A stretch of DNA of 64,000 nt, taken from assembly GCA_019670725.1 (NCBI GenBank), contig AP024629.1:3968001-4032000 (forward strand). The letters run 5' to 3'. This stretch comes from Alphaproteobacteria bacterium SO-S41 (GTDB taxonomy: Bacteria; Pseudomonadota; Alphaproteobacteria; Micropepsales; Micropepsaceae). This document shows positions 6,373-17,462 of the stretch, piece by piece; within the stretch, counting starts at the first letter, position 1, and each line of letters starts with the position of its first letter. The notes under the pieces were generated by a model. That model searched no databases. It saw only the letters and a program-made list of their open reading frames with translations, and was not told the origin of the DNA. A program made the translations under genes and the position numbers.

Positions 6373-7263
6373 ATGAGCGGAAATCCTGATCTTTTCGAGA
6401 CGGCGCTGCGCGAGATCGGCGCATCATTCGCGCGGCAGCCGGACAAACCGGAGGAGACGCCCGAGGGCACGGTGAAGGCGCTGTGGCTGGCGGCAGCGGG
6501 GACGCCGCTATCCGTCGAGGCGGCGTCGGAAGTCGCGCTGCCGTTGCTCGATGAGACGCAGGCAATGATGCTGAACGAGCTCGTCATCCGGCGTATCGCC
6601 GGTCTGCCGCTGGCGCATCTGACGGGCCGGCAGCGTTTCATGGGGCTCGATTTCATCGCGGGGCCTGACGCGCTGGTGCCGCGCAAGGAGACGGAATTGC
6701 TGGGCGGGCTGGCGCTGGCGCGGCTGGCGGGGATCGCCGGGCCGCGGGCGATCGATGTCTGCACGGGATCGGGCAATCTGGCGGTGGCGCTGGCGGCGAC
6801 GACACCGGGCGCGGTCGTCGATGCGGCGGACCTGTCGGCTGAAGCGGTCGCCATGGCGCGGCGCAACGCGGCGCTGCATGGCGTCGAGGGGCGCGTGACC
6901 TTTCATGTCGGCGATCTGTTCGACGCCCTGCCGCGCGCGGCGCTGGCAGGGGCGGCAGATCTGGTCGTCTGCAATCCGCCCTATATCTCGTCCGCCAAGG
7001 TCGAGGGGATGCCGGAGGAGATTTCGAAATACGAACCGCGCATGGCATTCGACGGCGGCACATTCGGGCTCAGCATCGTGGGCCGCTTGATCAAGGAAGC
7101 GCCGCTGTTCCTGAAGCGCGGCGGCTGGCTCTGCTTCGAGATCGGCAAGGGCCAGGGGCCGTACTGGCTGAAAGCACTGGGCCGGATGACGATCTATGGC
7201 GCGGTCGAGACGGCGGCCGACGCGGACGGCGACGTGCGCGCGCTGGCGGCGCGGGTCAGCTAG
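6373..7263 (+). CDS. PrmC/HemK-like class I SAM-dependent methyltransferase
   Basis: This is a 296-residue methyltransferase related to the N5-glutamine methyltransferases that modify release factors. The SAM-binding motif I is IDVCTGSGNLAVALA. The substrate-glutamine motif NPPY is at residues 201-204 (VVCNPPYIS). The segment RKETELLGG corresponds to the conserved PRxETE of the family. The N-terminal part (about 100 residues) is a helical domain as in PrmC. True prmC normally sits next to prfA; here it does not, so this may be a paralogue acting on another protein or small molecule. Its stop shares CTAG with the convergent flippase gene. Confidence 0.8.
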   Translation: MSGNPDLFETALREIGASFARQPDKPEETPEGTVKALWLAAAGTPLSVEAASEVALPLLDETQAMMLNELVIRRIAGLPLAHLTGRQRFMGLDFIAGPDALVPRKETELLGGLALARLAGIAGPRAIDVCTGSGNLAVALAATTPGAVVDAADLSAEAVAMARRNAALHGVEGRVTFHVGDLFDALPRAALAGAADLVVCNPPYISSAKVEGMPEEISKYEPRMAFDGGTFGLSIVGRLIKEAPLFLKRGGWLCFEIGKGQGPYWLKALGRMTIYGAVETAADADGDVRALAARVS

Positions 7264-8693
7264 ACTGGGAGCGCGCTGCGCGCCCGCCAGCTCCGCAGAT
7301 GGCCGCGCCAGAGAATGAGCGAGGCGACGCCGTAGACGAGCGCACCGACGAGCACCGCCAGCAACAGGCCGGCGATATCGTCGCGGTACGGGAGCGCGTA
7401 GACGGCGGCCGCCATCAGCACGGTTGCGGCGGCGATGCGCGCGAGATCGGCGAGGCGCAGCGTGTAGCCGGTGAGGCGCATAGCGCTGATCTGGGCAAAG
7501 GCGGCACCGGCGAGCGAAGCGAGGGCTGCGCCGGCAACAGCGCCGAGCAGTCCGCCGAGCAGCAGGCCGCCGGTGCAGAGGACGGCGGTCGCGATGGCTT
7601 CCACGAAGGCGGTCATCGCGGCGGCGCGGGTGCGGCCGAAGACGAGCAGCGCCTGTTCGGGGCCGTGCTCGCGGAACGCCTTGCAGGCGCCGGCGGCAAG
7701 CGCGAAGGGGAGCAGCAGCGCGGTTGCGGCACGGAAGGGCTCGGCGACGGCGATGTTCGAGAAGGCCTGCGACAGCAGTGCGCCGCCCGCGACCGCAGGG
7801 GCGAGCAGCGCCAGCATGAGCGCGCCGTTATCGGCGAGCTGGCGGCGCGCGCCGTCGGGGCCTTTGGTGTCGAGTTCGCGGATCGCGGCGGCGAAGGTCG
7901 CGCCGGTGACGATGAGCGCGACGAAGGCGGCGATGCGCAGGCCGAGCCACCAGGCCGTCGTGACGAGGCCGACGCCCTCGGTGCCCTGCCCCACTTCAAC
8001 GATCAGGCGAACGCCGTGATTGGCGGCCCATTCGAAGAGATGGGCCATGACCAGCGGCGCGCCATAGGTCCAGGACGAGCGCAGCATGGCGCGATCGACC
8101 TTGGGCCGCGTCGGGGTGAAGCGCATGAAGGGCAGGCCGGCGCTGAGGCTGAGCCCCTGCGCGATGGCATAGGCGATGAGCAGCGCTTCGGCGGTCGGCG
8201 AAATCGACGAGAGCGCGACGATGCCGAGGGCGAGCCCGCCGAGCGGGCCGCCGGCCTGTAGGATCGTAAAGGCGAGGTCGCTGTCCTCGGCGCGGGCGCG
8301 GGCGGCGAAGTGAGTCGCGGCATTGCGCGTGACGGTGAAGGCGGCGAGTGCCGCGAGGAATCCGGCGGTGGGAACGGCGTCGAGCACCAGCGACAGGGCC
8401 GCGCAGGCGACGATCGCTTGCAGCAGTGCACTGATGAGTTGGATCGCGGTTTCGGCGGCGTTGAGGCGCGCGCGATCCACGGGCTCGGCGTGGGCGGCGG
8501 CGTAGCGCTGGACGAATGAGGTCCACCACGCGACGACGCCGTAATAGACCAGTTCCTGCGCCGCCCAGGCGAGGGCGTAGACGCCGAGCGCTTCCGGCGA
8601 GAGCCAGTGGGTGAAGGCAACCGCCGCCGCCATCTGCGCCAGCGGCCCGGCGACCTGGCCGGGCATGGTGCGCAACGTGCGGGCGATCAGCAT
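7260..8693 (-). CDS. Polysaccharide/lipid-linked flippase-like membrane protein (MOP superfamily)
   Basis: This 477-residue protein has about 12-14 hydrophobic segments spread over its full length and few large loops. That pattern fits the MOP/Wzx-type exporters that flip lipid-linked sugars or similar products across the inner membrane. The N-terminal segment resembles the start of oligosaccharide flippases (GPLAQMAAAVAFTHWLSPEALGVYAL is seen as two parts of helix 1). It is the last gene of the leftward operon. Its ATG lies 1 nt after the stop of the NadE-like gene, which argues that it exports the product of the amidotransferase, carrier-protein and NadE enzymes. The substrate is not known. 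Confidence 0.75.
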   Translation of the reverse strand: MLIARTLRTMPGQVAGPLAQMAAAVAFTHWLSPEALGVYALAWAAQELVYYGVVAWWTSFVQRYAAAHAEPVDRARLNAAETAIQLISALLQAIVACAALSLVLDAVPTAGFLAALAAFTVTRNAATHFAARARAEDSDLAFTILQAGGPLGGLALGIVALSSISPTAEALLIAYAIAQGLSLSAGLPFMRFTPTRPKVDRAMLRSSWTYGAPLVMAHLFEWAANHGVRLIVEVGQGTEGVGLVTTAWWLGLRIAAFVALIVTGATFAAAIRELDTKGPDGARRQLADNGALMLALLAPAVAGGALLSQAFSNIAVAEPFRAATALLLPFALAAGACKAFREHGPEQALLVFGRTRAAAMTAFVEAIATAVLCTGGLLLGGLLGAVAGAALASLAGAAFAQISAMRLTGYTLRLADLARIAAATVLMAAAVYALPYRDDIAGLLLAVLVGALVYGVASLILWRGHLRSWRARSALPV

Positions 8694-8694
8694 G

Positions 8695-9672
8695 TCAGAA
8701 GAGCAGCGGCGCTTCGTGCAGGTAGCGCGTCGCCTTGCGCTTGGCGGCGATGTCCCGCCAGACGGTTTCGACCTGTTCTTCCGTCAGACCGGCGCGTTCG
8801 GCCGCGATTGCGGCGGTGAGGCCGTTTTCCAGCGCGAAGAGGCAGACATCCATCACCTGATAGGGGGCGGAGAAATAGAACTCCTCCTGGCTCTGCGGCA
8901 GCGACCAGGTGTCGGTGGTCGGCGGTCGCGAGCGGATCTCAGCCGGCAGGTCGAAATGCTGCGCCAGCGCGTAGACCTGGGTCTTGTAGAGATGCGCGAT
9001 CGGCTTGAAGTCAGCCGCCCCGTCGCCGTTCTTCACGAAGAAACCCTGATCGTATTCCAGCCGGTTGGGCGTGCCCGCGACGGCATAGCCGAGCCGATCG
9101 GCGTGAAAATATTCGAGCTGTTTGCGGGTGCGCTGCTTCATGTTTGCAGCCGCGATGATGCCGCGATAGGCGTCGGCGGACATGCGGTGCTGGCTGCGCT
9201 CGCCCGTTGGCGATTCCACGACGAGATAGGAGATGGCGAACCCCCCCGCGCCGTCGCCCAACACGATCTTGCACTTCCAGTCGGGGCCGTAATCGGGAAC
9301 CGTCGCGCGGATGAAGGCGTCGCGGCGCTGATAGCAGCCGGCGGCGTCGAGCGCGGGGCCGATGTCTTCGAGCACGGTTTCGATGCCCAATGCTTCGGCA
9401 GCGGCGCGGCCGAGGCGGAGGCTGTCGGGATCGCTGTCGCATTCCGGCATAAGCACGCCGACGACGCGGTTGGCGCCCAAAGCGGCGACGCAGAGCGCCG
9501 CTGTCACGGTCGAGTCGATGCCGCCGGAGAGGCCAAGGACGGCGCCGCGGCGCTTCAGCGTCTGGGTGACGCCGGTGCGGATGGTCGCAGCGAGGCGCGC
9601 GATCTCAGCTGCCTCGTCGAGCGCGAGAAGCGAGAGGTCGGGGCTGCGGGCAGCCGGCGCCAGAGCGTTCAT
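8695..9672 (-). CDS. nadE: NadE-family ATP-dependent amidating enzyme (NAD+ synthase-like)
   Basis: The protein (325 aa) belongs to the NAD+ synthase family, which adenylates a carboxylate and transfers ammonia to it. Seen are the PP-loop LGLSGGIDSTV and the later family motifs KQRTRKQLEY, AGTPNRLEY, KNGDGAADF and LYKTQVYALA. There is no N-terminal nitrilase-like glutaminase domain, so it would need free ammonia or a partner that supplies it. A GGAG ribosome site precedes the ATG; the frame open further upstream overlaps the carrier-protein gene and is not used. It lies between the acyl carrier protein and the flippase. It may be the housekeeping enzyme, but the context suggests a dedicated amidation step in the same pathway as the AsnB-like enzyme. 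Confidence 0.82.
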   Translation of the reverse strand: MNALAPAARSPDLSLLALDEAAEIARLAATIRTGVTQTLKRRGAVLGLSGGIDSTVTAALCVAALGANRVVGVLMPECDSDPDSLRLGRAAAEALGIETVLEDIGPALDAAGCYQRRDAFIRATVPDYGPDWKCKIVLGDGAGGFAISYLVVESPTGERSQHRMSADAYRGIIAAANMKQRTRKQLEYFHADRLGYAVAGTPNRLEYDQGFFVKNGDGAADFKPIAHLYKTQVYALAQHFDLPAEIRSRPPTTDTWSLPQSQEEFYFSAPYQVMDVCLFALENGLTAAIAAERAGLTEEQVETVWRDIAAKRKATRYLHEAPLLF

Positions 9673-9694
9673 GGCCAGTCTCCGGAACTGATGC

Positions 9695-9955
9695 TTAGGC
9701 GGCCACGCGCGCGTGCTTGCCGTCGACGAAGGCGACGATGGCGGCGATGGAGTCGAGATTGGCGGGCACGATTTCCTCGTCGCCGATAACGAGGCCGAAC
9801 TTCTCCTCAAGGAAGGAGACGAGTTCCAGCACGCCGGTCGAGTCGATGAGGCCTTCGTCGATCAACGAGCGATCGGTGGGCAGCGCGGCGGCATCGCCGC
9901 CATACATGAAGTTCTCGGCGATGAAGGCGCGGAGATCGGATTCGACTGCGGACAT
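9695..9955 (-). CDS. Acyl carrier protein
   Basis: This is an 86-residue phosphopantetheine-binding carrier protein, acidic and mostly helical. The attachment serine is in LIDSTGVLEL; the usual DSL motif reads DST here, and the second half (FLEEKFGLVIGDEEI) is typical of acyl carrier proteins. It lies 11 nt after the AsnB-like gene and 22 nt before the NadE-like gene on the same strand. A stand-alone carrier in such a set is expected to hold an acyl or aminoacyl intermediate that its neighbours modify. It is not next to fabD/fabG/fabF, so it is not the main fatty-acid ACP. Confidence 0.88.
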   Translation of the reverse strand: MSAVESDLRAFIAENFMYGGDAAALPTDRSLIDEGLIDSTGVLELVSFLEEKFGLVIGDEEIVPANLDSIAAIVAFVDGKHARVAA

Positions 9956-9966
9956 GGAAGTCTCCG

Positions 9967-11919
9967 TTAGAACGAGCTGGCGAGTTGAAGAGCGGGCTGA
10001 GCCGGCGCGGCGAAGCGGCGGCGCAGCAATTCGGTGGTGGCGATGCCGACCAGCGCGGCGTTTTCGGCGAAGCCCAGCGACGGCGTGCGGGCGGCCTTGG
10101 CGGCGAGCTTCGACACAGCGCCGGGATCGAAAAGGCCAGCTTCCGCAATGGTGGCAGGGGCGAAAAGGTCTTGCAGTTCGGTCGCCGCACCTTGGCCGAA
10201 GAAGACACCGGATTCAGGCGCGCGGTAAGGCTGCTTGGGGCGCTCGGCGATCACCGGCGGCAACAGGTCCTTCATCGCCTCGCGCAAAATGTGCTTCTCA
10301 CGGAGGCCGCGCAGTTTCAGCTCGGGCGACAGACGCGCGGCGAACTCGACGACGCGGTGGTCGAGGAAGGGGAAACGGCCCTCGACACCGTGCGCCATCG
10401 CGACCCGGTCGCCTTGCGAGGAGAGGATGTAGCCCGGCAGGAGATGGGTGGTTTCCAGATACTGCGCCTGCGAGAGCGGGTGCCAGTGCGCGAACTCGGC
10501 CGGTAGCGTCGCGCGCAAATCGTCGAGCGCGTCGTAACCCGCGGTGGCGCGCTTGGTTTCGGCAGAGAAGAACGCCTTGGCGCGCGTCGTCGTGCGATAG
10601 CGCGGCAGATGCGAGAAGAGGGGATCGCTGAGATCGTCGCGATCGGTGCCGAAGAACGCTTTCAGGAAGGCGGGCGACTGACTCTGCAGGCGCGGCAGAT
10701 AGGGGTAGAGGCGCTGTAACAGGCGCGGGCGGCGCGCCGAGCCCGGCTGGCGCGCACAGAAGCGGCGGAGCTTCGCCTCCTTGAAGATGTCGTAGCCGCC
10801 GAAGACCTCGTCGGCGCCCTCGCCGGTCAGCACGACCTTGAGGCCGTCCTGCTGCACGGCTCTGGACAAGAGGAACAGCGGCACGGGCGAGGTGCGCAGG
10901 ATCGGGCGTTCCGCATGGGCGACGACGGCAGGCAGCGCGCGGCCGATGTCGCCGGCGCTGCAGGCGAGCGCGCTGTGGCGCGTGCCGAGCGCCTCGCTCA
11001 TGATGCGCTGGAAGCCGCTTTCATCGAACTCGGCATCCTCGAAGGTGACGGAAAAGGTGCGGATGTTCTCGCAACCCTCGGCGCGGGCGAGCGCCGTCGT
11101 CACGCAGGAATCGAGCCCGCCGCTGAGATAGGCGCCGACAGGGACATCGGCGCGGAGGCGGATGCGTGTGGCGTCCGCGAGGAGAGCGCGGACTTCCTCG
11201 ACGGCTTCGGCTTCGTCGGTAACGACGGCATCGCCCATGCGCGGGAAATCGAGCTGCCAGTAGCGGCTGACCGAGATGTTGCCCCTGGTCGCGAGCAGCA
11301 TATGCGCAGGCGGCAGTTCGGCGATGTCGCGGAAGCCGGTGCGCGGGGCGATCGGCGCCCAGGCTGTAAAGATCTGGTCGAGCGCGATGAGATCAAGGTC
11401 CGGCGCGATGCCGGGGACCGTGAAGAGCGCCTTCATCTCCGACGCGAAGGCGAGCATCGCGCCGCGCTGGGCATAGTAGAGCGGACGCACGCCCATGCGA
11501 TCGCGGGCGAGCATCAACCGGCCGAGCTTGGCATCCCACACCGCGAAGGCGAAATCGCCGTTCAGCCTGGTGACGCAATCCGGCCCCATGGCGCGGTAGA
11601 GATGGAGGATGACCTCGGTGTCCGACGTCGTGCGGAAGACGAAGCCCTGCGCGATCAGATCGGCGCGGAGTTCGCGGTAGTTGAAGATCTCGCCGTTGAA
11701 GCTGATCGTGATCGCGCCATCGTCGGTCGACATCGGCTGTGCGCCGGTGGCAAGGTCGATGATGCTGAGGCGGGTATGCGCGAGGCCGCAGGGACCGTCG
11801 AGATGGATGCCATGCGCATCCGGCCCGCGATGGGTCAGCGCCGCGGCCATGCGCGCGAGCGTCGCCGTCTTGTCGGCGGCCGCGCCGGGCAGATCGAGGA
11901 AGCCTGCGATCCCGCACAT
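9967..11919 (-). CDS. asnB: Asparagine synthase (glutamine-hydrolysing)-family amidotransferase
   Basis: This 650-residue protein has the two-domain AsnB build. The N-terminal class II glutaminase domain begins with the nucleophile Cys2 (MCGIAGF) and contains RLSIIDLATGAQPM and the SFNGEIFNYREL loop. The C-terminal ATP-pyrophosphatase domain carries SGGLDS near residue 266 and LTGEGADEVFGGYD. It releases ammonia from glutamine and amidates an adenylated carboxylate. Proteins of this length in operons with a carrier protein, an acyltransferase-like protein and a flippase often serve polymer or secondary-product synthesis rather than asparagine supply. The gene overlaps the preceding one by 1 nt (TGATG), so it is translationally coupled. 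Confidence 0.88.
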   Translation of the reverse strand: MCGIAGFLDLPGAAADKTATLARMAAALTHRGPDAHGIHLDGPCGLAHTRLSIIDLATGAQPMSTDDGAITISFNGEIFNYRELRADLIAQGFVFRTTSDTEVILHLYRAMGPDCVTRLNGDFAFAVWDAKLGRLMLARDRMGVRPLYYAQRGAMLAFASEMKALFTVPGIAPDLDLIALDQIFTAWAPIAPRTGFRDIAELPPAHMLLATRGNISVSRYWQLDFPRMGDAVVTDEAEAVEEVRALLADATRIRLRADVPVGAYLSGGLDSCVTTALARAEGCENIRTFSVTFEDAEFDESGFQRIMSEALGTRHSALACSAGDIGRALPAVVAHAERPILRTSPVPLFLLSRAVQQDGLKVVLTGEGADEVFGGYDIFKEAKLRRFCARQPGSARRPRLLQRLYPYLPRLQSQSPAFLKAFFGTDRDDLSDPLFSHLPRYRTTTRAKAFFSAETKRATAGYDALDDLRATLPAEFAHWHPLSQAQYLETTHLLPGYILSSQGDRVAMAHGVEGRFPFLDHRVVEFAARLSPELKLRGLREKHILREAMKDLLPPVIAERPKQPYRAPESGVFFGQGAATELQDLFAPATIAEAGLFDPGAVSKLAAKAARTPSLGFAENAALVGIATTELLRRRFAAPAQPALQLASSF

Positions 11920-13085
11920 CAGGCGAACTCGTCGCTGACAAGACGCGTCCAGGTCTCGCCGAAGAAACCACCAAGCGGCGCGGCGCCGCGCTCGAGCGCC
12001 GTCATGAGGCCGGTGTTCTTGGTATCGGCGACCGTGGCGCCGCGATGACGCATGATGCAGCCGGACTTGAAGAGCGCGTTCATCAGCGCGTTCTGGCTGC
12101 GGCCGCGCACGGCGATGCAGCCCTCGGCCGTCGCGAAATCGATGAGGCTGGCGAACACCGCATCGCCCTGACCGGGCATCGCGGTGATCTGAAGCGTCTC
12201 GGCCGTCGCGCCGCGCCGGGCGTAGACGAGATAGCAGCCGAGCAGCTTGCCGGAGCGCGCAGTGACGACACGGCGGAAAAGCTGGCCGTGGCGGGTCTTG
12301 CGCGCCGCCTGATCAAGCATCCAGCGGCCGGCGGCGTCATCGAGATCGAGCGCGATGTCGAGCTTCGCGGAGACCTCGTTATAGGCGGCGAGGAAGGCGG
12401 CATCGTCCACCGTCTCGCCCACCCAGGGCTGCATGGGGTCAGATGCGCGGCGGCGGCCAAACGCGGCGGCGACGCCGGACGCCGGGGCCAGCAAGGCGGC
12501 GAGCGGCTTCGGCAAGCGATTGCGGACGACCGAAACGCCGAACGCAGCGCTGCGGATGATCTTCAGCCATTCCATGCTGGCAAGCGGCAGCGTGCGGCCG
12601 CCGATCCGCTCCCACAGAGTCTTGGATGTCCAGTTGGCGGTGTCGCCGAGCGAGAGCGCCTGCGGGCCGGACATGAAGCTACGCAGCAGGCGAGCGCCGG
12701 CCATCGGACGGCTGGCGGGATCGCGCACCATCAGCGCGCCGGCGATGGAGGCGCGCACCGGCTCGCCCTTGAAGCGCAACCGAAGCGGCAAGGCGCCGAC
12801 AAAACCATCGATCGTGCCGTTGGCAGAGACGAAGACGTGCGAGGGCATCTGCGGATCGTGCCAGGGGTGGTCGAAATAGACGTCACGCAGATGGGCGATC
12901 AGGGATTGGGGCGGCAGGCCCGCGGCGCGGTAGAACACGCTTTGAAAGAGTGTCGCGATGGCCGGCAGATCATCGATCCGGCAGGGGCGGAGGCGGTCAT
13001 GGGCCGCAGACAGAGCCGCGCGGGCGGGCGGCGCAATATGCGCTTCCCCCGCTTCAGCGGCCAGAGCTGCAACCTGAACGGACAC
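11919..13085 (-). CDS. GNAT-fold (putative double-domain) acyltransferase-like protein
   Basis: This is a 388-residue cytoplasmic protein without membrane segments. The N-terminal half looks like a GNAT fold: LRPCRIDDLPAIATLFQSVF, then VFVSANGTIDGFVGALPLRL and a segment with VRASIAGALMVRDP, which is the usual place for acetyl-CoA binding. The C-terminal half (about 210-388) also resembles a GNAT or FemAB-like domain (GKLLGCYLVYARRG). It is the first gene of the leftward operon with asnB, the carrier protein, nadE and the flippase, so it may acylate or aminoacylate the intermediate held by the carrier. The family call rests on weak similarity recognised by eye. Confidence 0.55.
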   Translation of the reverse strand: MSVQVAALAAEAGEAHIAPPARAALSAAHDRLRPCRIDDLPAIATLFQSVFYRAAGLPPQSLIAHLRDVYFDHPWHDPQMPSHVFVSANGTIDGFVGALPLRLRFKGEPVRASIAGALMVRDPASRPMAGARLLRSFMSGPQALSLGDTANWTSKTLWERIGGRTLPLASMEWLKIIRSAAFGVSVVRNRLPKPLAALLAPASGVAAAFGRRRASDPMQPWVGETVDDAAFLAAYNEVSAKLDIALDLDDAAGRWMLDQAARKTRHGQLFRRVVTARSGKLLGCYLVYARRGATAETLQITAMPGQGDAVFASLIDFATAEGCIAVRGRSQNALMNALFKSGCIMRHRGATVADTKNTGLMTALERGAAPLGGFFGETWTRLVSDEFA

Positions 13086-13240: not shown

Positions 13241-14542
13241 CTAGCAATCCAGCGTCGCCGCGCGCTCCCAATCGCTGATCGCGCCGCTATAGGCGTTCCA
13301 CTCGGCGGTCTTGAGTTTCACATAGGACGCGGCGAAGCCGGTGCCGAGCGCTGCCTTCAGCGCGTCGGCCTTGTCGAAGGCCCGGAGCGCATCGAGCAGG
13401 TTCAGGGGCAGTTTGCGCACATCCTTAAGCGTGTGGCCGTCCTCGTACATGTTGATGTCGAGGCGCTTGCCGGGATCGGTGCTGGACGCGATGCCGTCGA
13501 GGCCGGCGGCGAGATAGGCGGCCTGGAGCAGATAGGGGTTCACCGCGCCGTCGGCGAGACGGATCTCGAACCGGCCGGCATCGGGAATACGCACCATGTG
13601 GGTGCGGTTGTTGCCGGTATAGCTGATCGTGTTCGGCGACCAGGTTGCGCCGGACCGGGTCGCGGGCGCGTTGATGCGCTTGTAGGAATTGACGGTCGGA
13701 TTGGTCAGGGCCACAAACCCTTCCGCGTGATTGAGAATGCCGCCGAGGAAATTGTAGGCGAGTGCCGAAAGCCCGAGTTCGCCGGCCTCGTCATGAAAGA
13801 GGTTCTTCTCACCACGCCAGAGCGAGACATGCGCATGGCAGCCATTGCCCGTGAGATGCGCGAAGGGCTTGGGCATGAAGGTCGCGCGGAGGCCGTGCTT
13901 CTCCGCGATCGACTTCGCCATGAACTTGAAGAAGGCATGGCGGTCGGCGGTGATGAGCGCGCTGTCATATTCCCAGTTCATCTCGAACTGGCCGTTCGCA
14001 TCCTCGTGGTCGTTTTGATAGGGCTTCCAACCAAGCGCCAGCATCGCGTCGCAGATCTCGGCGATGACGTCATAGCGGCGCATGAGCGCCTGCTGGTCGT
14101 AGCAGGGCTTGGCCTGATGGTCGGCGGCATCCGAAATCGCCGTGCCGTCGGGCGTGATCAGGAAGTATTCGCATTCGACGCCCGACTTCATCTCGTAGCC
14201 CTGGGCGGCCGCGGTGGCGATGAGGCGCTTCAGGACATTGCGCGGCCCCTGCTCGACGGGCTTGCCGTCCATCCAGAGATCGGCGGCGACCCAGCCGACT
14301 TCGGGCTTCCACGGGAGTTGAATGAGGGTTGCGGGATCGGGCCGGGCGAACATGTCGCTGTCGGCCGGGGTCATGTCGAGCCATGTCGCGAAGCCCGCAA
14401 AGCCCGCGCCGGCGCGGACCATTTCGCCGATCGCCGCGGCGGGGACGAGCTTGGCGCGCTGGGCGCCGAAGAGGTCGGTGAAGGAGACGAGGAAGTATTT
14501 GATGCCGCGCTCTTGTGCGGCGAGTTCCAGATCGGTCGTCAT
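13241..14542 (-). CDS. glnT: Type III glutamine synthetase (GlnT) / gamma-glutamylmethylamide synthetase-like
   Basis: This 433-residue ATP-dependent ligase belongs to the glutamine synthetase superfamily. It joins ammonia or an amine to the gamma-carboxyl of glutamate. Seen are GVECEYFLITPDG (metal-binding glutamates), NDHEDANGQFEMN, the glycine-rich TGNGCHAHVSLW and NNRTHMVRIP. Length and motif pattern fit the GlnT/GmaS branch rather than the main GlnA. The start at 14542 follows GGTGGGGA; the frame extends 18 codons upstream but without a ribosome site. It lies 13 nt after glxD in the order glxB-glxC-glxD-glnT, the same order as mgsA-mgsB-mgsC-gmaS of the N-methylglutamate pathway. Whether it uses methylamine or ammonia cannot be told. 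Confidence 0.85.
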   Translation of the reverse strand: MTTDLELAAQERGIKYFLVSFTDLFGAQRAKLVPAAAIGEMVRAGAGFAGFATWLDMTPADSDMFARPDPATLIQLPWKPEVGWVAADLWMDGKPVEQGPRNVLKRLIATAAAQGYEMKSGVECEYFLITPDGTAISDAADHQAKPCYDQQALMRRYDVIAEICDAMLALGWKPYQNDHEDANGQFEMNWEYDSALITADRHAFFKFMAKSIAEKHGLRATFMPKPFAHLTGNGCHAHVSLWRGEKNLFHDEAGELGLSALAYNFLGGILNHAEGFVALTNPTVNSYKRINAPATRSGATWSPNTISYTGNNRTHMVRIPDAGRFEIRLADGAVNPYLLQAAYLAAGLDGIASSTDPGKRLDINMYEDGHTLKDVRKLPLNLLDALRAFDKADALKAALGTGFAASYVKLKTAEWNAYSGAISDWERAATLDC

Positions 14543-14555
14543 GCAGTCCCCACCT

Positions 14556-15881
14556 TCAATAGCGCGCTCCTCCCGGAATCCAGTCGGTGCCCGCAAGCGG
14601 GAGGCCGGCCATCGCGGCGGCCTCGACCGTCAGGGCCACGAGGTCTTCGGGTTCAAGATTATGGACGTGGCTCTTGCCGCAGGCGCGCGCGATGGTCTGG
14701 GCTTCCAGCGTCAGCACGGAAAGATAGTTGGCGAGGCGGCGACCAGCGGCGACCGGATCGAGCCGCGCGGCGAGCAGCGGGTCCTGGGTGGTGATGCCCG
14801 CGGGATCGCGGCCTTCATGCCAGTCGTCATAAGCGCCGGCGGTCGTGCCGAGCTTAGCGTAGTCGTCTTCCAGCGCGGGATCGTTGCCGCCGAGCGCGAC
14901 CAGCGCCGCCGTGCCGATCGCGACGGCATCAGCGCCGAGCGCGAGCGCCTTGGCGACATCGGCGCCCGAGCGGATACCGCCGGAGACGATGAGTTGCACC
15001 TTGCGATGGAGGCCGAGTTCCTGAAGCGCCTTCACGGCGGGGCGGATGGCGGAGAGGATGGGGAGGCCGACATGTTCGATGAAGACGTCCTGCGTCGCCG
15101 CCGTGCCGCCCTGCATGCCGTCGAGCACCACGACATCCGCGCCGGATTTCACGGCGAGCGCGGTGTCGTAATAGGGGCGTGAGGCGCCGACCTTCACATA
15201 GATCGGCTTTTCCCAATCGGTGATCTCGCGCAGTTCCTCGATCTTGATTTCCAGATCGTCGGGGCCGGTCCAGTCGGGATGGCGGCAGGCGGAGCGCTGG
15301 TCGATGCCTTCGGGCAGTGTGCGCATGGCGGCGACGCGCGGGCTGATCTTCTGGCCCAGCAGCATGCCGCCGCCGCCGGGCTTGGCGCCCTGGCCGATGA
15401 CGATCTCGATGGCGTCGGCCTTGCGGAGATCGTCGGGGTTCATGCCGTAGCGCGACGGGAGGACCTGGTAGACGAGAAGATTGGAGTGGCCGCGCTCTTC
15501 GGCGGTCATGCCGCCGTCGCCGGTCGTCGTGGAGGTGCCCATCGCCGTCGCGCCGCGGCCGAGTGCCTCCTTGGCGGGACCGGAGAGCGCACCGAAACTC
15601 ATGCCGGCGATGGTAACGGGGATCTTCAGCGCGATCGGCTTCTTCGCGAAGCGGGTGCCGAGCAGGACGTCGGTGCCGCATTTCTCGCGATAACCTTCCA
15701 GCGGATAACGCGAGATCGAGGCGCCGACGAAGAGCAGGTCGTCGAAATGGGGCAGCTTGCGCTTCGCGCCGCCGCCACGGATGTCGTAGATGCCGGTCGC
15801 GGCAGCGCGGCGGATTTCGGACAGCGTGCCGGGATCGAAGGTCGCGGAGAAGCGCGGCAAGGTGCGGGGCGTCTGGTCCAT
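14556..15881 (-). CDS. glxD: GlxD/MgsC: FMN-binding glutamate-synthase-like subunit
   Basis: This 441-residue protein corresponds to the central and FMN-binding part of glutamate synthase GltB. Seen are TTTGDGGMTAEERGHSN, the glycine-rich GQGAKPGGGGMLLG, VVLDGMQGGTAATQD and the FMN phosphate site SGGIRSGADVAKALALGADA. It takes ammonia made by the GlxB subunit and uses it, or an amine, to reductively form glutamate or N-methylglutamate. The gene starts 4 nt after glxC, so the ATG at 15881 is used although the frame is open further up. The GltD-like NADPH subunit is not nearby. It is equally well described as N-methylglutamate synthase subunit C. Confidence 0.85.
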   Translation of the reverse strand: MDQTPRTLPRFSATFDPGTLSEIRRAAATGIYDIRGGGAKRKLPHFDDLLFVGASISRYPLEGYREKCGTDVLLGTRFAKKPIALKIPVTIAGMSFGALSGPAKEALGRGATAMGTSTTTGDGGMTAEERGHSNLLVYQVLPSRYGMNPDDLRKADAIEIVIGQGAKPGGGGMLLGQKISPRVAAMRTLPEGIDQRSACRHPDWTGPDDLEIKIEELREITDWEKPIYVKVGASRPYYDTALAVKSGADVVVLDGMQGGTAATQDVFIEHVGLPILSAIRPAVKALQELGLHRKVQLIVSGGIRSGADVAKALALGADAVAIGTAALVALGGNDPALEDDYAKLGTTAGAYDDWHEGRDPAGITTQDPLLAARLDPVAAGRRLANYLSVLTLEAQTIARACGKSHVHNLEPEDLVALTVEAAAMAGLPLAGTDWIPGGARY

Positions 15882-15885
15882 GCGC

Positions 15886-16572
15886 TCAGTACCGGCCCGC
15901 ATTGTCGACATGGAAATGATAGAGCGTGCGGGCCGAGCCATAGAATTTGAACTCGTCGGGCGCGACATCTTCGAGACCGGCACGGGTGAGCACGGCGTTG
16001 AGCGCGGCGCGATCTTCTGCAGCCATCGGCTTTTCGATACAATCGGCGCCGAGGCTCGCGACTTTGCCACGCACGAAGAGGCGGGCTTCATAAAGGGAGT
16101 CGCCCAGCGCCTCACCGGCGTCGCCGAAGACGACGAGATTGCCGGCCTGCGCCATGAAGGCGCTCATCGGGCCAATATTGCCCTTCACGACGATGTCGAT
16201 GCCCTTCATCGAGATGCCGCAGCGGGCGGAGGCATTGCCTTCGATGACGAGCAGGCCGCCCTGCCCCGTCGCGCCCGCGGACTGGCTGGCGTCGCCTTTG
16301 ATGCGGACCGAGCCCGACATCATGTTTTCAGCGACGCCGACGCCCGCATTCCCGGCGACGGTGATCGTCGCGGACTTGTTCATCCCGCCGCAGTAGTAGC
16401 CGGCATGGCCGTCGATCTGGATTTCGATGGGCGCGTCGAGGCCGACCGCGATGGCATGCTTGCCTTGCGGATTGGCGACCCGCCAATGAGTCTCGTTGGT
16501 GTCGGGCGGCAGCGCGTGCAGCGCCGCGTTGAGCGCGCGCACCGGTTCGGCGGCGAGGTCGAATTCTCTCAT
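15886..16572 (-). CDS. glxC: GlxC/MgsB: GXGXG-repeat subunit of glutamate-synthase-like complex
   Basis: This 228-residue protein consists mainly of the right-handed beta-helix found as the last domain of glutamate synthase GltB and in FwdC. The repeating pattern of small and hydrophobic residues with glycines is seen from about residue 60 to 170 (GYYCGGMNKSATITVAGNAG, SGSVRIKGDAS, GLLVIEGNAS, NLVVFGDAGEALGDSLY). It has no catalytic residues of its own and is expected to hold the GlxB and GlxD subunits together. The ATG overlaps the glxB stop (ATGA), which points to coupled translation and equal amounts. Confidence 0.87.
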   Translation of the reverse strand: MREFDLAAEPVRALNAALHALPPDTNETHWRVANPQGKHAIAVGLDAPIEIQIDGHAGYYCGGMNKSATITVAGNAGVGVAENMMSGSVRIKGDASQSAGATGQGGLLVIEGNASARCGISMKGIDIVVKGNIGPMSAFMAQAGNLVVFGDAGEALGDSLYEARLFVRGKVASLGADCIEKPMAAEDRAALNAVLTRAGLEDVAPDEFKFYGSARTLYHFHVDNAGRY

Positions 16573-17462
16573 GCCGCGCGTTCCCAGGCATAGACGGTGG
16601 CAGGCTCGGGTTCGAAGACACGGGCATTAGCCGCGCCGGGCAGGACGGCGAGCGCACGATATTCCGAGCCGAAGGCGACATAGTCGTCGGTTTCCGCCAT
16701 GACCGCGGGCTTGCAGGCGATGGGATCGCGCAAGACCGCGAAGCCGGTCTCGGTGCCGACGACAAAGGTGTAGAAGCCGTCGAGATCGGCGAGGCTCGCC
16801 TCCAATGCCTGACCCAGCGTGCGGCCCTGACGCATCCGCCAGGTGAGATAGCCCGCGGCCACTTCGGAATCATTGTCGGTCGCGAAGGCGATGCCCTCGC
16901 GGCGGAGTTCGCGGCGCACGGCGTTGTGATTGGAGAGCGAGCCGTTATGGACGAGGCACTGGTCCGGCCCGGTCGAGAAGGGATGGGCGCCGCGCGTGGT
17001 GACGGCGGACTCCGTCGCCATGCGGGTATGGCCGATCGCGTGGGTGCCGGACATGGTGGAGAGCGCGAACTTGCGGGCGACGTCGGCGGGGAGGCCGACC
17101 TCTTTGTAAATTTCCATGCGCGTGCCGGCGCTAACGAGGGTGAGCGTGGGGTCGGCCGCGATGAGGGCGGAGAGGCGATCGCCCGTCGCGACGGGCACTG
17201 CGACGACGGCGTGGTTGGCGCGGAGCGACCAGCTGAGGCCGCCGACCGTGTCGTTCAGGCGCGTGAGCGCCGCTTCCAGCGTAGGCGCGTCGGCGGCGCT
17301 GAGCGTGAACTTCAGACGATCGCCCTTGCCGGCGCCGTAGACGGCGAAGCCGGCACTGTCCGGGCCGCGGTCGCTGAGCACGCCAAGCATGGCGGCCAGC
17401 ATCGTGCCGAGGCCGGGCTCAAGGGCGGGGTTCTTCAGGAAGAGGCCGGCAATGCCGCACAT
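16569..17462 (-). CDS. glxB: GlxB/MgsA: class II glutamine amidotransferase subunit
   Basis: This is a 297-residue glutaminase with the N-terminal nucleophile Cys2 (MCGIAGLF), to be exposed after loss of the initiator methionine. The typical LVHNGSLSNHNAVR and TDNDSEVAAGYL segments bind glutamine and shape the site. It provides ammonia to the GlxD subunit. It is the first of the four genes glxBCD-glnT. It follows an XRE-cupin regulator gene by 88 bp, and that gap holds an AT-rich palindrome and a hairpin, so it may have its own promoter. Confidence 0.88.
   Translation of the reverse strand: MCGIAGLFLKNPALEPGLGTMLAAMLGVLSDRGPDSAGFAVYGAGKGDRLKFTLSAADAPTLEAALTRLNDTVGGLSWSLRANHAVVAVPVATGDRLSALIAADPTLTLVSAGTRMEIYKEVGLPADVARKFALSTMSGTHAIGHTRMATESAVTTRGAHPFSTGPDQCLVHNGSLSNHNAVRRELRREGIAFATDNDSEVAAGYLTWRMRQGRTLGQALEASLADLDGFYTFVVGTETGFAVLRDPIACKPAVMAETDDYVAFGSEYRALAVLPGAANARVFEPEPATVYAWERAA

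What the first reader, a model, noticed from the sequence alone, without database searches (positions are those of the whole stretch)
7260..13085. Five-gene module GNAT-AsnB-carrier protein-NadE-flippase: a possible undescribed amidated, carrier-bound product and its export
Two different ammonia-adding enzymes (AsnB-type with its own glutaminase and a NadE-family protein without one) flank a stand-alone carrier protein, with a GNAT-like protein first and a flippase last. Gaps are 22 bp or less with TGATG coupling, so this is one functional unit. The set matches no pathway I can name. The NadE-like enzyme may have been recruited from NAD synthesis to amidate an acid held on the carrier, perhaps as a surface-polymer or lipid substituent.
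Basis: partly seen in the sequence, partly recalled or inferred. Interest (0 to 1): 0.7.

Follow-up and report, generated by a model that had tools for sequence, protein, structure and literature searches.

The report
Polysaccharide-decorating cassette with borrowed NAD enzyme
A widely shared gene set, for which I found no published description, pairs a carrier protein with two amide-forming enzymes, one of them a relative of NAD synthetase that has probably been reused to modify surface sugars; such genes are now labelled as NAD-making enzymes.

Summary
The five genes are there as described. The genome has a separate glutamine-dependent NadE, so this one is not needed for NAD. It belongs to a rare NadE subfamily (NF002048; 15 of 398 phylum genomes, own included) with a conserved insert of about 50 residues. 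In 80 loci found through this NadE, a carrier protein lies within 9 kb in 79, an AMP ligase in 79, AsnB in 64 and the tandem-GNAT protein in 63. The conserved unit is therefore carrier-AMP ligase-NadE, usually with AsnB and GNAT. The window lacks the ligase; the genome has one stray ligase of the nearest type at 845 kb and no exosortase. A HemK-like methyltransferase (6373-7263, +), not mentioned in the finding, groups with methyltransferases found beside this module elsewhere. The commonest families among sampled neighbours are polysaccharide genes, and the window flippase is 46% identical to one in this genome's polysaccharide cluster. Best reading: a carrier-dependent cassette that puts an amidated, perhaps N-methylated, acyl group on a surface polysaccharide. 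Substrate and product are unknown.

The parts
11919..13085 (-). tandem-GNAT acyltransferase (388 aa)
   Evidence: no Pfam/NCBIfam match; model pLDDT 89.6; Foldseek best NMT 5npq 1.2e-13; Eis 3r1k Z 19.8, rmsd 3.7, 283 aligned; homologue within 9 kb of NadE in 63 of 80 loci
9967..11919 (-). AsnB-type glutamine-dependent amidotransferase (650 aa)
   Evidence: PF00733 1.7e-92, GATase_7 5.3e-47; TIGR01536 511.8 over cut-off 267.1; TIGR03108 434.5 under 816.9; Cys2 kept; only full match of its kind in the genome
9695..9955 (-). stand-alone carrier protein (86 aa), attachment Ser39 in a DST motif
   Evidence: PF00550 21 bits; best NCBIfam match NF052616, 53.6 under 130; Ser39 invariant in 47 rows
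8695..9672 (-). NadE-family synthetase without glutaminase domain, with insert at residues about 111-165
   Evidence: NF002048 479.9 over 313; model pLDDT 87.0; Foldseek best 2e18 9.7e-19; residue comparison
7260..8693 (-). HfsF-like flippase (477 aa); local addition, not part of the conserved unit
   Evidence: NF050818 73.9 under 700; 46% identical over 457 aa to a flippase in the genome's polysaccharide cluster
6373..7263 (+). HemK-family methyltransferase (296 aa), likely associated gene
   Evidence: TIGR00536 169.6 over 115.5, PrmC model 196.6 under 199.1; tree places it with 20 module-linked methyltransferases against 31 others, 100/97; NPPY motif
9673..9694 (-). 22-nt gap where most other loci carry a ~515-aa AMP-forming ligase
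   Evidence: sequence; ligase within 9 kb of NadE in 79 of 80 loci, and between carrier and NadE in most maps; present in the same-genus genome, L120

Best explanation
A carrier-protein-dependent decoration cassette for a surface polysaccharide. Proposed steps: (1) an AMP-forming ligase activates a carboxylic acid and loads it on the carrier; in most loci the ligase is encoded in the cassette, here it would act in trans, the candidate being the lone XrtA-type ligase at 845 kb. (2) AsnB, using glutamine, and the NadE-family synthetase, using free ammonia, each adenylate a carboxylate and turn it into a carboxamide, on the carrier-bound acyl group or on a uronic acid of the sugar unit. (3) The HemK-like enzyme may N-methylate an amide. 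(4) The tandem-GNAT protein moves the acyl group from the carrier to an amino sugar. (5) The lipid-linked unit is flipped by an HfsF-like flippase and polymerised by enzymes encoded elsewhere. Shown: gene set and linkage, folds, kept motifs, a separate true NadE, polysaccharide genes as the commonest families near sampled modules, a related flippase in the genome's polysaccharide cluster. Inferred: every substrate, the order of steps, the in-trans ligase, the methylation.
For: Linkage: carrier 79, ligase 79, AsnB 64, GNAT 63 of 80 loci, and carrier, ligase and AsnB in 9 of 9 further loci, in varying order. Separate glutamine-dependent NadE. NadE-family insert and invariant substitutions. Purifying selection against the same-genus copy: dN/dS about 0.27 AsnB, 0.29 NadE, 0.40 carrier, 0.62 GNAT. 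Commonest families among 136 neighbour genes of 35 loci: polysaccharide deacetylase 6, GNVR 6, Polysacc_synt 5, Glycos_transf_2 5, Wzy_C 5, Wzz 5; none of these is among the 25 commonest around 18 unrelated anchors. Window flippase 46% identical to one beside the Wzz gene of the own genome. Precedent: WbpS, VimE and VimA on the Wbp/Vim sugar (PMC7468200, passages).
Against: The window's own flanks hold no polysaccharide gene apart from the flippase (glutamine synthetase III and a Na+/H+ antiporter); the checked neighbours in the same genus (L120) are a thiolase-like protein, an ion-channel-like protein and an MFS transporter. The ligase is missing here. The 35 loci were picked by me for variety and leave out the 13 AsnB-less loci. 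In one search families with up to 5 members may be hidden. The carrier's best NCBIfam match is an ornithine-lipid carrier, though far under its cut-off. No substrate is known.
Confidence: 0.55

Rival explanations
1. Aminolipid or N-acyl-amino-acid cassette: ligase and carrier supply a fatty acyl group, the NMT/Eis-like GNAT makes an amide with an amino acid, AsnB/NadE amidate the head group, and the flippase moves the lipid.
For: Best NCBIfam match of the carrier is the OlsHI ornithine-lipid carrier, 53.6 bits; GNAT fold resembles N-myristoyltransferase; no polysaccharide cluster beside the window copy.
Against: That carrier match is far under its cut-off of 130. Wzy, Wzz, glycosyltransferase and polysaccharide-deacetylase families are the commonest near sampled modules. 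The NMT-like fold is shared with Eis, which acetylates small amines (recalled), so it does not name the acyl group.
Confidence: 0.2
2. A small soluble amide (osmolyte or secondary metabolite) is made on the carrier and kept or secreted.
For: AsnB also matches the N-acetylglutaminylglutamine amidotransferase model (389.9 bits) and the carrier the cispentacin carrier AmcB (37.6 bits).
Against: Both are under their cut-offs (570.1 and 80); polysaccharide families near sampled modules.
Confidence: 0.1
3. The NadE-family protein is a spare, ammonia-dependent NAD synthetase that merely sits beside the other genes.
For: NCBIfam calls the subfamily NAD(+) synthase; catalytic motifs and NadE fold kept.
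Against: A complete glutamine-dependent NadE exists; the subfamily is rare (15 of 398); carrier and ligase are nearby in 79 of 80 loci; conserved insert and substitutions.
Confidence: 0.08
4. In this genome the cassette is a decaying relic after loss of its ligase.
For: Ligase absent between carrier and NadE where the same-genus genome has it.
Against: Open frames intact, catalytic residues kept, dN/dS under 1 (this covers the time since the split, not since the loss); a candidate ligase lies elsewhere in the genome; L056 also lacks the ligase within 9 kb.
Confidence: 0.05

Closest known systems
Wbp/Vim linking-sugar pathway (Porphyromonas gingivalis, Tannerella forsythia; PMC7468200, passages)
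   Same: An AsnB-like amidotransferase (WbpS, eps_aminotran_1 family) makes a uronamide; a putative N-acetyltransferase (VimA) is proposed to put an amino acid on a sugar amine after deacetylation by VimE. Polysaccharide deacetylases also occur near some modules here.
   Different: No carrier protein is mentioned in that text (0 occurrences of 'acyl carrier' or 'carrier protein'), and no NadE-family enzyme in the passages I saw. The window AsnB is under the eps_aminotran_1 cut-off.
Exosortase A (XrtA/PEP-CTERM) polysaccharide cassette
   Same: The module ligases resemble its AMP ligase TIGR03098 (L023: 488.1 bits); AsnB resembles its amidotransferase TIGR03108 (434.5 bits).
   Different: Both are under the cut-offs (592.35 and 816.9); no exosortase in the own genome. 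Only the stray 845-kb ligase passes TIGR03098, by 3.5 bits.
D-alanylation (dlt) system (recalled)
   Same: AMP ligase, small carrier protein, transfer to a surface polymer; DltC is a weak carrier match (19.1 bits).
   Different: Two amide-forming enzymes and a GNAT; DltB/DltD were not searched for.
Caulobacter holdfast pathway (PMC6372794, passages)
   Same: HfsF is the flippase and HfsK a putative N-acyltransferase that modifies the polysaccharide; the own genome's cluster has a sugar transferase, Poly_export, Wzz, a WecG-type transferase and an Acetyltransf_6 protein.
   Different: The AsnB-carrier-NadE unit does not appear in the passages I saw; the HfsF match is far under its cut-off.
NAD synthetase (NadE)
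   Same: Fold and most catalytic motifs.
   Different: Insert, substitutions, gene context, redundancy with the true NadE.

Membership tests
NAD synthetase (NadE) | NadE fold and ATP-pyrophosphatase motif | tested here: met
   2e18 9.7e-19; SGGxDS invariant except the x position
NAD synthetase (NadE) | sole or housekeeping NAD synthetase of the genome | tested here: not met
   PF02540+PF00795 protein at 2,970 kb
NAD synthetase (NadE) | NaAD-binding pocket kept | tested here: inconclusive
   NxxxR, GTxNxxE, GDGxAD and the YK lysine kept; Q209, T253, T255, Q262 and about 50 extra residues differ from 2e18, 3fiu and 3p52; which residues touch NaAD is recalled, no ligand model made
NAD synthetase (NadE) | NaAD to NAD activity | not testable with these tools
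   needs an assay
Exosortase A (XrtA) cassette | exosortase in the genome | tested here: not met
   PF09721: 0 matches
Exosortase A (XrtA) cassette | amidotransferase over the TIGR03108 cut-off | tested here: not met
   434.5 against 816.9; none over cut-off in the genome
Exosortase A (XrtA) cassette | ligase over the TIGR03098 cut-off | tested here: met
   595.9 against 592.35, but 3.1 Mb away from the module and alone; module ligases scored under it (L023 488.1; G398 466 and 416.8)
Asparagine synthetase | sequence family AsnB | tested here: met
   TIGR01536 511.8 against 267.1
Asparagine synthetase | needed to make asparagine for protein synthesis | tested here: inconclusive
   no AsnRS over cut-off (best 94.3 against 342.6), so tRNA-dependent Asn formation is expected; GatCAB not searched
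PrmC (release-factor methyltransferase), for window 6373-7263 | over the PrmC cut-off and beside prfA | tested here: not met
   196.6 against 199.1; another HemK gene (221 bits) lies beside a release-factor gene recognised by its GGQ sequence
HfsF flippase | over the NF050818 cut-off | tested here: not met
   73.9 against 700
Tandem-GNAT acyltransferase | two GNAT domains in the Eis/NMT arrangement | tested here: met
   model and structural matches; activity untested

The most novel reading that the evidence does not exclude
A NadE-family enzyme has left NAD metabolism and become a dedicated amide synthetase of a carrier-protein polysaccharide-decoration system shared by several bacterial phyla. 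A bold version: its natural substrate is a nucleotide-sugar uronic acid, which like NaAD is a nucleoside diphosphate joined to a carboxylated ring, with the conserved insert reshaping the acceptor site; the HemK-like enzyme then makes an N-methylcarboxamide, a substituent whose biosynthesis I do not know of.
Probability: 0.3. Interest if true: 0.8.

Novelty: new variant of a known kind. Interest (0 to 1): 0.58.

Why it matters
If right, a subfamily now annotated NAD(+) synthase works on surface polymers, and a core metabolic enzyme family gains a second job. The cassette predicts concrete substituents (carboxamide, possibly N-methylcarboxamide, carrier-derived N-acyl groups) on polysaccharides of rhizobia, Devosia, planctomycetes and others. 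The module is complete in culturable environmental species, so single-gene deletions plus polysaccharide NMR can decide it.

Tried and rejected
Rejected or weakened: NAD synthesis as the role of this NadE. Exosortase-system membership. N-acetylglutaminylglutamine amide synthesis, under its cut-off. The methyltransferase as PrmC. Window flippase as a relative of the flippase type near 11 of 80 modules: hhalign probability 0.3% with only four sequences in that profile. Fusions among core genes: none found in the loci examined. A relocated module ligase: the best own-genome match to the same-genus module ligase is the 845-kb one, 41% identity.

Literature: ten searches. Searches listed papers whose titles and abstract openings do not describe this gene set; one search found none; one search was uninformative (2,682 papers met two of its terms, 12 listed, none of the 12 with a NadE term). 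Passages were read in PMC3376133, PMC7646526, PMC2922099, PMC7468200, PMC3684757 and PMC6372794; PMC7646526 mentions a third, glutaminase-less NadE in Azospirillum brasilense without giving it a role in those passages. The library holds open-licence papers only, so 'no description found' is limited to it.

Alignment A1 holds 41 of 55 listed NadE references, A2 43 of 55 GNAT references plus L120. The neighbour scan took 136 genes from 35 of 80 loci that I picked for variety; the 13 AsnB-less loci and loci where my gene caller missed NadE (11) were left out. Its first gene list was not scanned. The control took 130 of 139 called genes; orthologous neighbourhoods repeat in it, and families with up to 5 members may be hidden below the 25 shown. 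Gene calls in loci came from my own composition- or conservation-based scripts. Of the 47 HemK matches the tree used the 30 with loci plus three read from L122, L124 and L125; some non-module rows may be PrmB-type; the window protein is sister to the module group on a long branch. dN/dS is a simple pairwise estimate. A 350-aa gene after NadE in planctomycetes (L082:11084-12136) has no Pfam match and was not pursued after one search failed.
Full report
What is there. On the minus strand, 13085 to 7260, lie a 388-aa tandem-GNAT protein, an AsnB-type amidotransferase, an 86-aa carrier protein, a NadE-family protein (start at 9672) and a flippase, with one TGATG overlap and gaps of 11, 22 and 1 nt. 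The first protein matches no Pfam or NCBIfam family, but its model (pLDDT 89.6) matches N-myristoyltransferase and Eis-type chains in Foldseek and Eis 3r1k at Z 19.8, rmsd 3.7, 283 residues. On the other strand, 6373-7263, a HemK-family methyltransferase with an NPPY motif converges on the flippase.

The NadE protein is not the genome's only NAD synthetase. A protein with NAD_synthase (1.8e-67) and CN_hydrolase (2.7e-27) domains lies at 2,970 kb. The window protein belongs to the NF002048 subfamily (479.9 bits against 313), found in 15 of 398 phylum genomes and 2 of 41 relatives, own genome counted in both. Its fold is NadE (2e18, 9.7e-19). SGGxDS, NxxxR, GTxNxxE, GDGxAD and the lysine of YK are kept. 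Between residues 110 and 176 it has 65 residues where 2e18 has 14; the stretch is modelled as a helix and three strands and contains invariant residues such as C113, Y114, R116, R117, D118, P126, K135, V152 and R163 (42 rows). Gln209, Thr253, Thr255 and Gln262 are invariant in those 42 rows and differ from the three solved sequences shown (2e18, 3fiu, 3p52). Which positions touch NaAD is recalled, not tested.

The conserved unit. A scan with the NadE protein gave 80 loci, most labelled as Hyphomicrobiales genera, with others labelled Betaproteobacteria, Candidatus Manganitrophus, Planctomyces, Planctomycetota, Kuenenia, Armatimonadetes and Sandaracinaceae. Within 9 kb of NadE: carrier 79 of 80 (the exception, L062, is cut about 820 bp before NadE), AMP ligase 79 of 80 (exception L056), AsnB 64, GNAT 63, methyltransferase 19, one flippase type 11; carrier, ligase and AsnB together 63; those plus GNAT 48. 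Of the 16 loci without AsnB, 13 have full flanks and mostly carry Rhizobium or Neorhizobium labels; 3 lie near contig ends. Eight more loci, from 8 of the 14 other genomes that matched, and one from the same genus have carrier, ligase and AsnB in 9 of 9 cases, in varying order (L117-L125). Constant content with varying order speaks for joint function.

The missing ligase. In the window 22 nt separate carrier and NadE, where most other maps show a ligase of about 515 aa, AMP-binding by Pfam and closest to the XrtA-type ligase model TIGR03098. The same-genus genome G398 has GNAT-AsnB-carrier-ligase-NadE (L120). The best such ligase in the own genome is at 845 kb (595.9 bits, just over the TIGR03098 cut-off of 592.35), among RND-efflux, guanine-deaminase and enoyl-CoA-hydratase genes. 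Of 21 genomes searched, own, G398 and G422 match at E 1e-110 or better, and the own genome has no exosortase. I take the 845-kb ligase as the likely partner in trans; at 41% identity to the G398 module ligase it would be a replacement, not the same gene moved. The shared genes evolve under constraint against G398 (dN/dS about 0.27 AsnB, 0.29 NadE, 0.40 carrier, 0.62 GNAT).

The methyltransferase. Another HemK gene of the genome, at 1,130 kb, follows a release-factor gene (recognised by reading its GGQ sequence) and is taken as PrmC. In a tree of 52 HemK-family proteins the window protein falls with 20 module-linked ones against 31 others (100/97); it is sister to them on a long branch and has a longer N terminus. 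Six of 15 module-bearing genomes have a short-form HemK gene within 4.4 kb of NadE and a seventh at 24 kb; the other eight do not; none of the 17 matches in 15 genomes without the subfamily is of the short form. HemK enzymes methylate a glutamine amide (established knowledge), which would fit a product with a carboxamide; this is inference.

Polysaccharide link. Among 136 neighbour genes from 35 loci of my choice the commonest Pfam families are polysaccharide deacetylase (6), GNVR (6), Polysacc_synt (5), Glycos_transf_2 (5), Wzy_C (5) and Wzz (5); around 18 unrelated HemK anchors the 25 commonest are others (with the limit stated under Tried and rejected). The window's own flanks are not polysaccharide genes. 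The genome has a cluster at about 3,041-3,061 kb with a bacterial sugar transferase, Poly_export, a beta-barrel protein, a GT4, Wzz/GNVR, a WecG-type transferase and an Acetyltransf_6 protein, plus a membrane protein without Pfam match that may be the polymerase. Its flippase is 46% identical over 457 aa to the window's, so the window flippase may handle a related lipid-linked unit. The layout recalls the Caulobacter holdfast pathway, where HfsF flips, HfsC polymerises and HfsK is a putative N-acyltransferase (PMC6372794, passages).

Mechanism and rivals. AsnB (glutaminase Cys2 kept) and NadE enzymes make amides through acyl-adenylates (established for both families). With a ligase, a carrier and a GNAT beside them, the simplest scheme is loading, amidation, optional methylation, transfer to a sugar amine, and flipping. 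The nearest worked-out precedent is the Wbp/Vim linking sugar, where WbpS makes the uronamide and VimA is proposed to add an amino acid after VimE deacetylation (PMC7468200, passages); a ligase plus carrier would be one way to activate such an acid. A lipid product is the main rival. AsnB is unlikely to serve translation: no AsnRS passes its cut-off, though GatCAB was not searched.

Verdict. Substrate and product remain unknown.

Noticed in passing
window 13241-17462 (-): Type III glutamine synthetase (TIGR03105, 673.8 bits over 469.6) followed by three open frames, the last starting MCGIAG like a class-II glutaminase; looks like a glutamate/N-methylglutamate operon unrelated to the module.
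   Followed up: no
L066 (record labelled Bacillus subtilis SK6B4): Carries a module with the same flanking gene clusters as L062, labelled Brucellaceae; the label or assembly is probably wrong.
   Followed up: no
L025-L030, L032, L034-L037, L039, L073: Subtype with carrier-ligase-NadE-GNAT, no AsnB within 9 kb, and a second ligase-like gene downstream.
   Followed up: partly
G398 (L120; L071 lies on a contig of the same length as G398:C48): The same-genus genome has two NadE genes of this subfamily and two in-module ligases.
   Followed up: partly
L082:11084-12136, and relatives in L085, L088, L093: A ~350-aa gene directly after NadE in planctomycete-type loci; the one scanned has no Pfam match.
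   Followed up: no
Methanosarcina acetivorans (control genome): The NF002048 NadE subfamily also rings in this archaeon, over its cut-off; context not looked at.
   Followed up: no
own genome, 3,041-3,061 kb (L195, L196): Compact polysaccharide cluster with a flippase 46% identical to the window's.
   Followed up: partly
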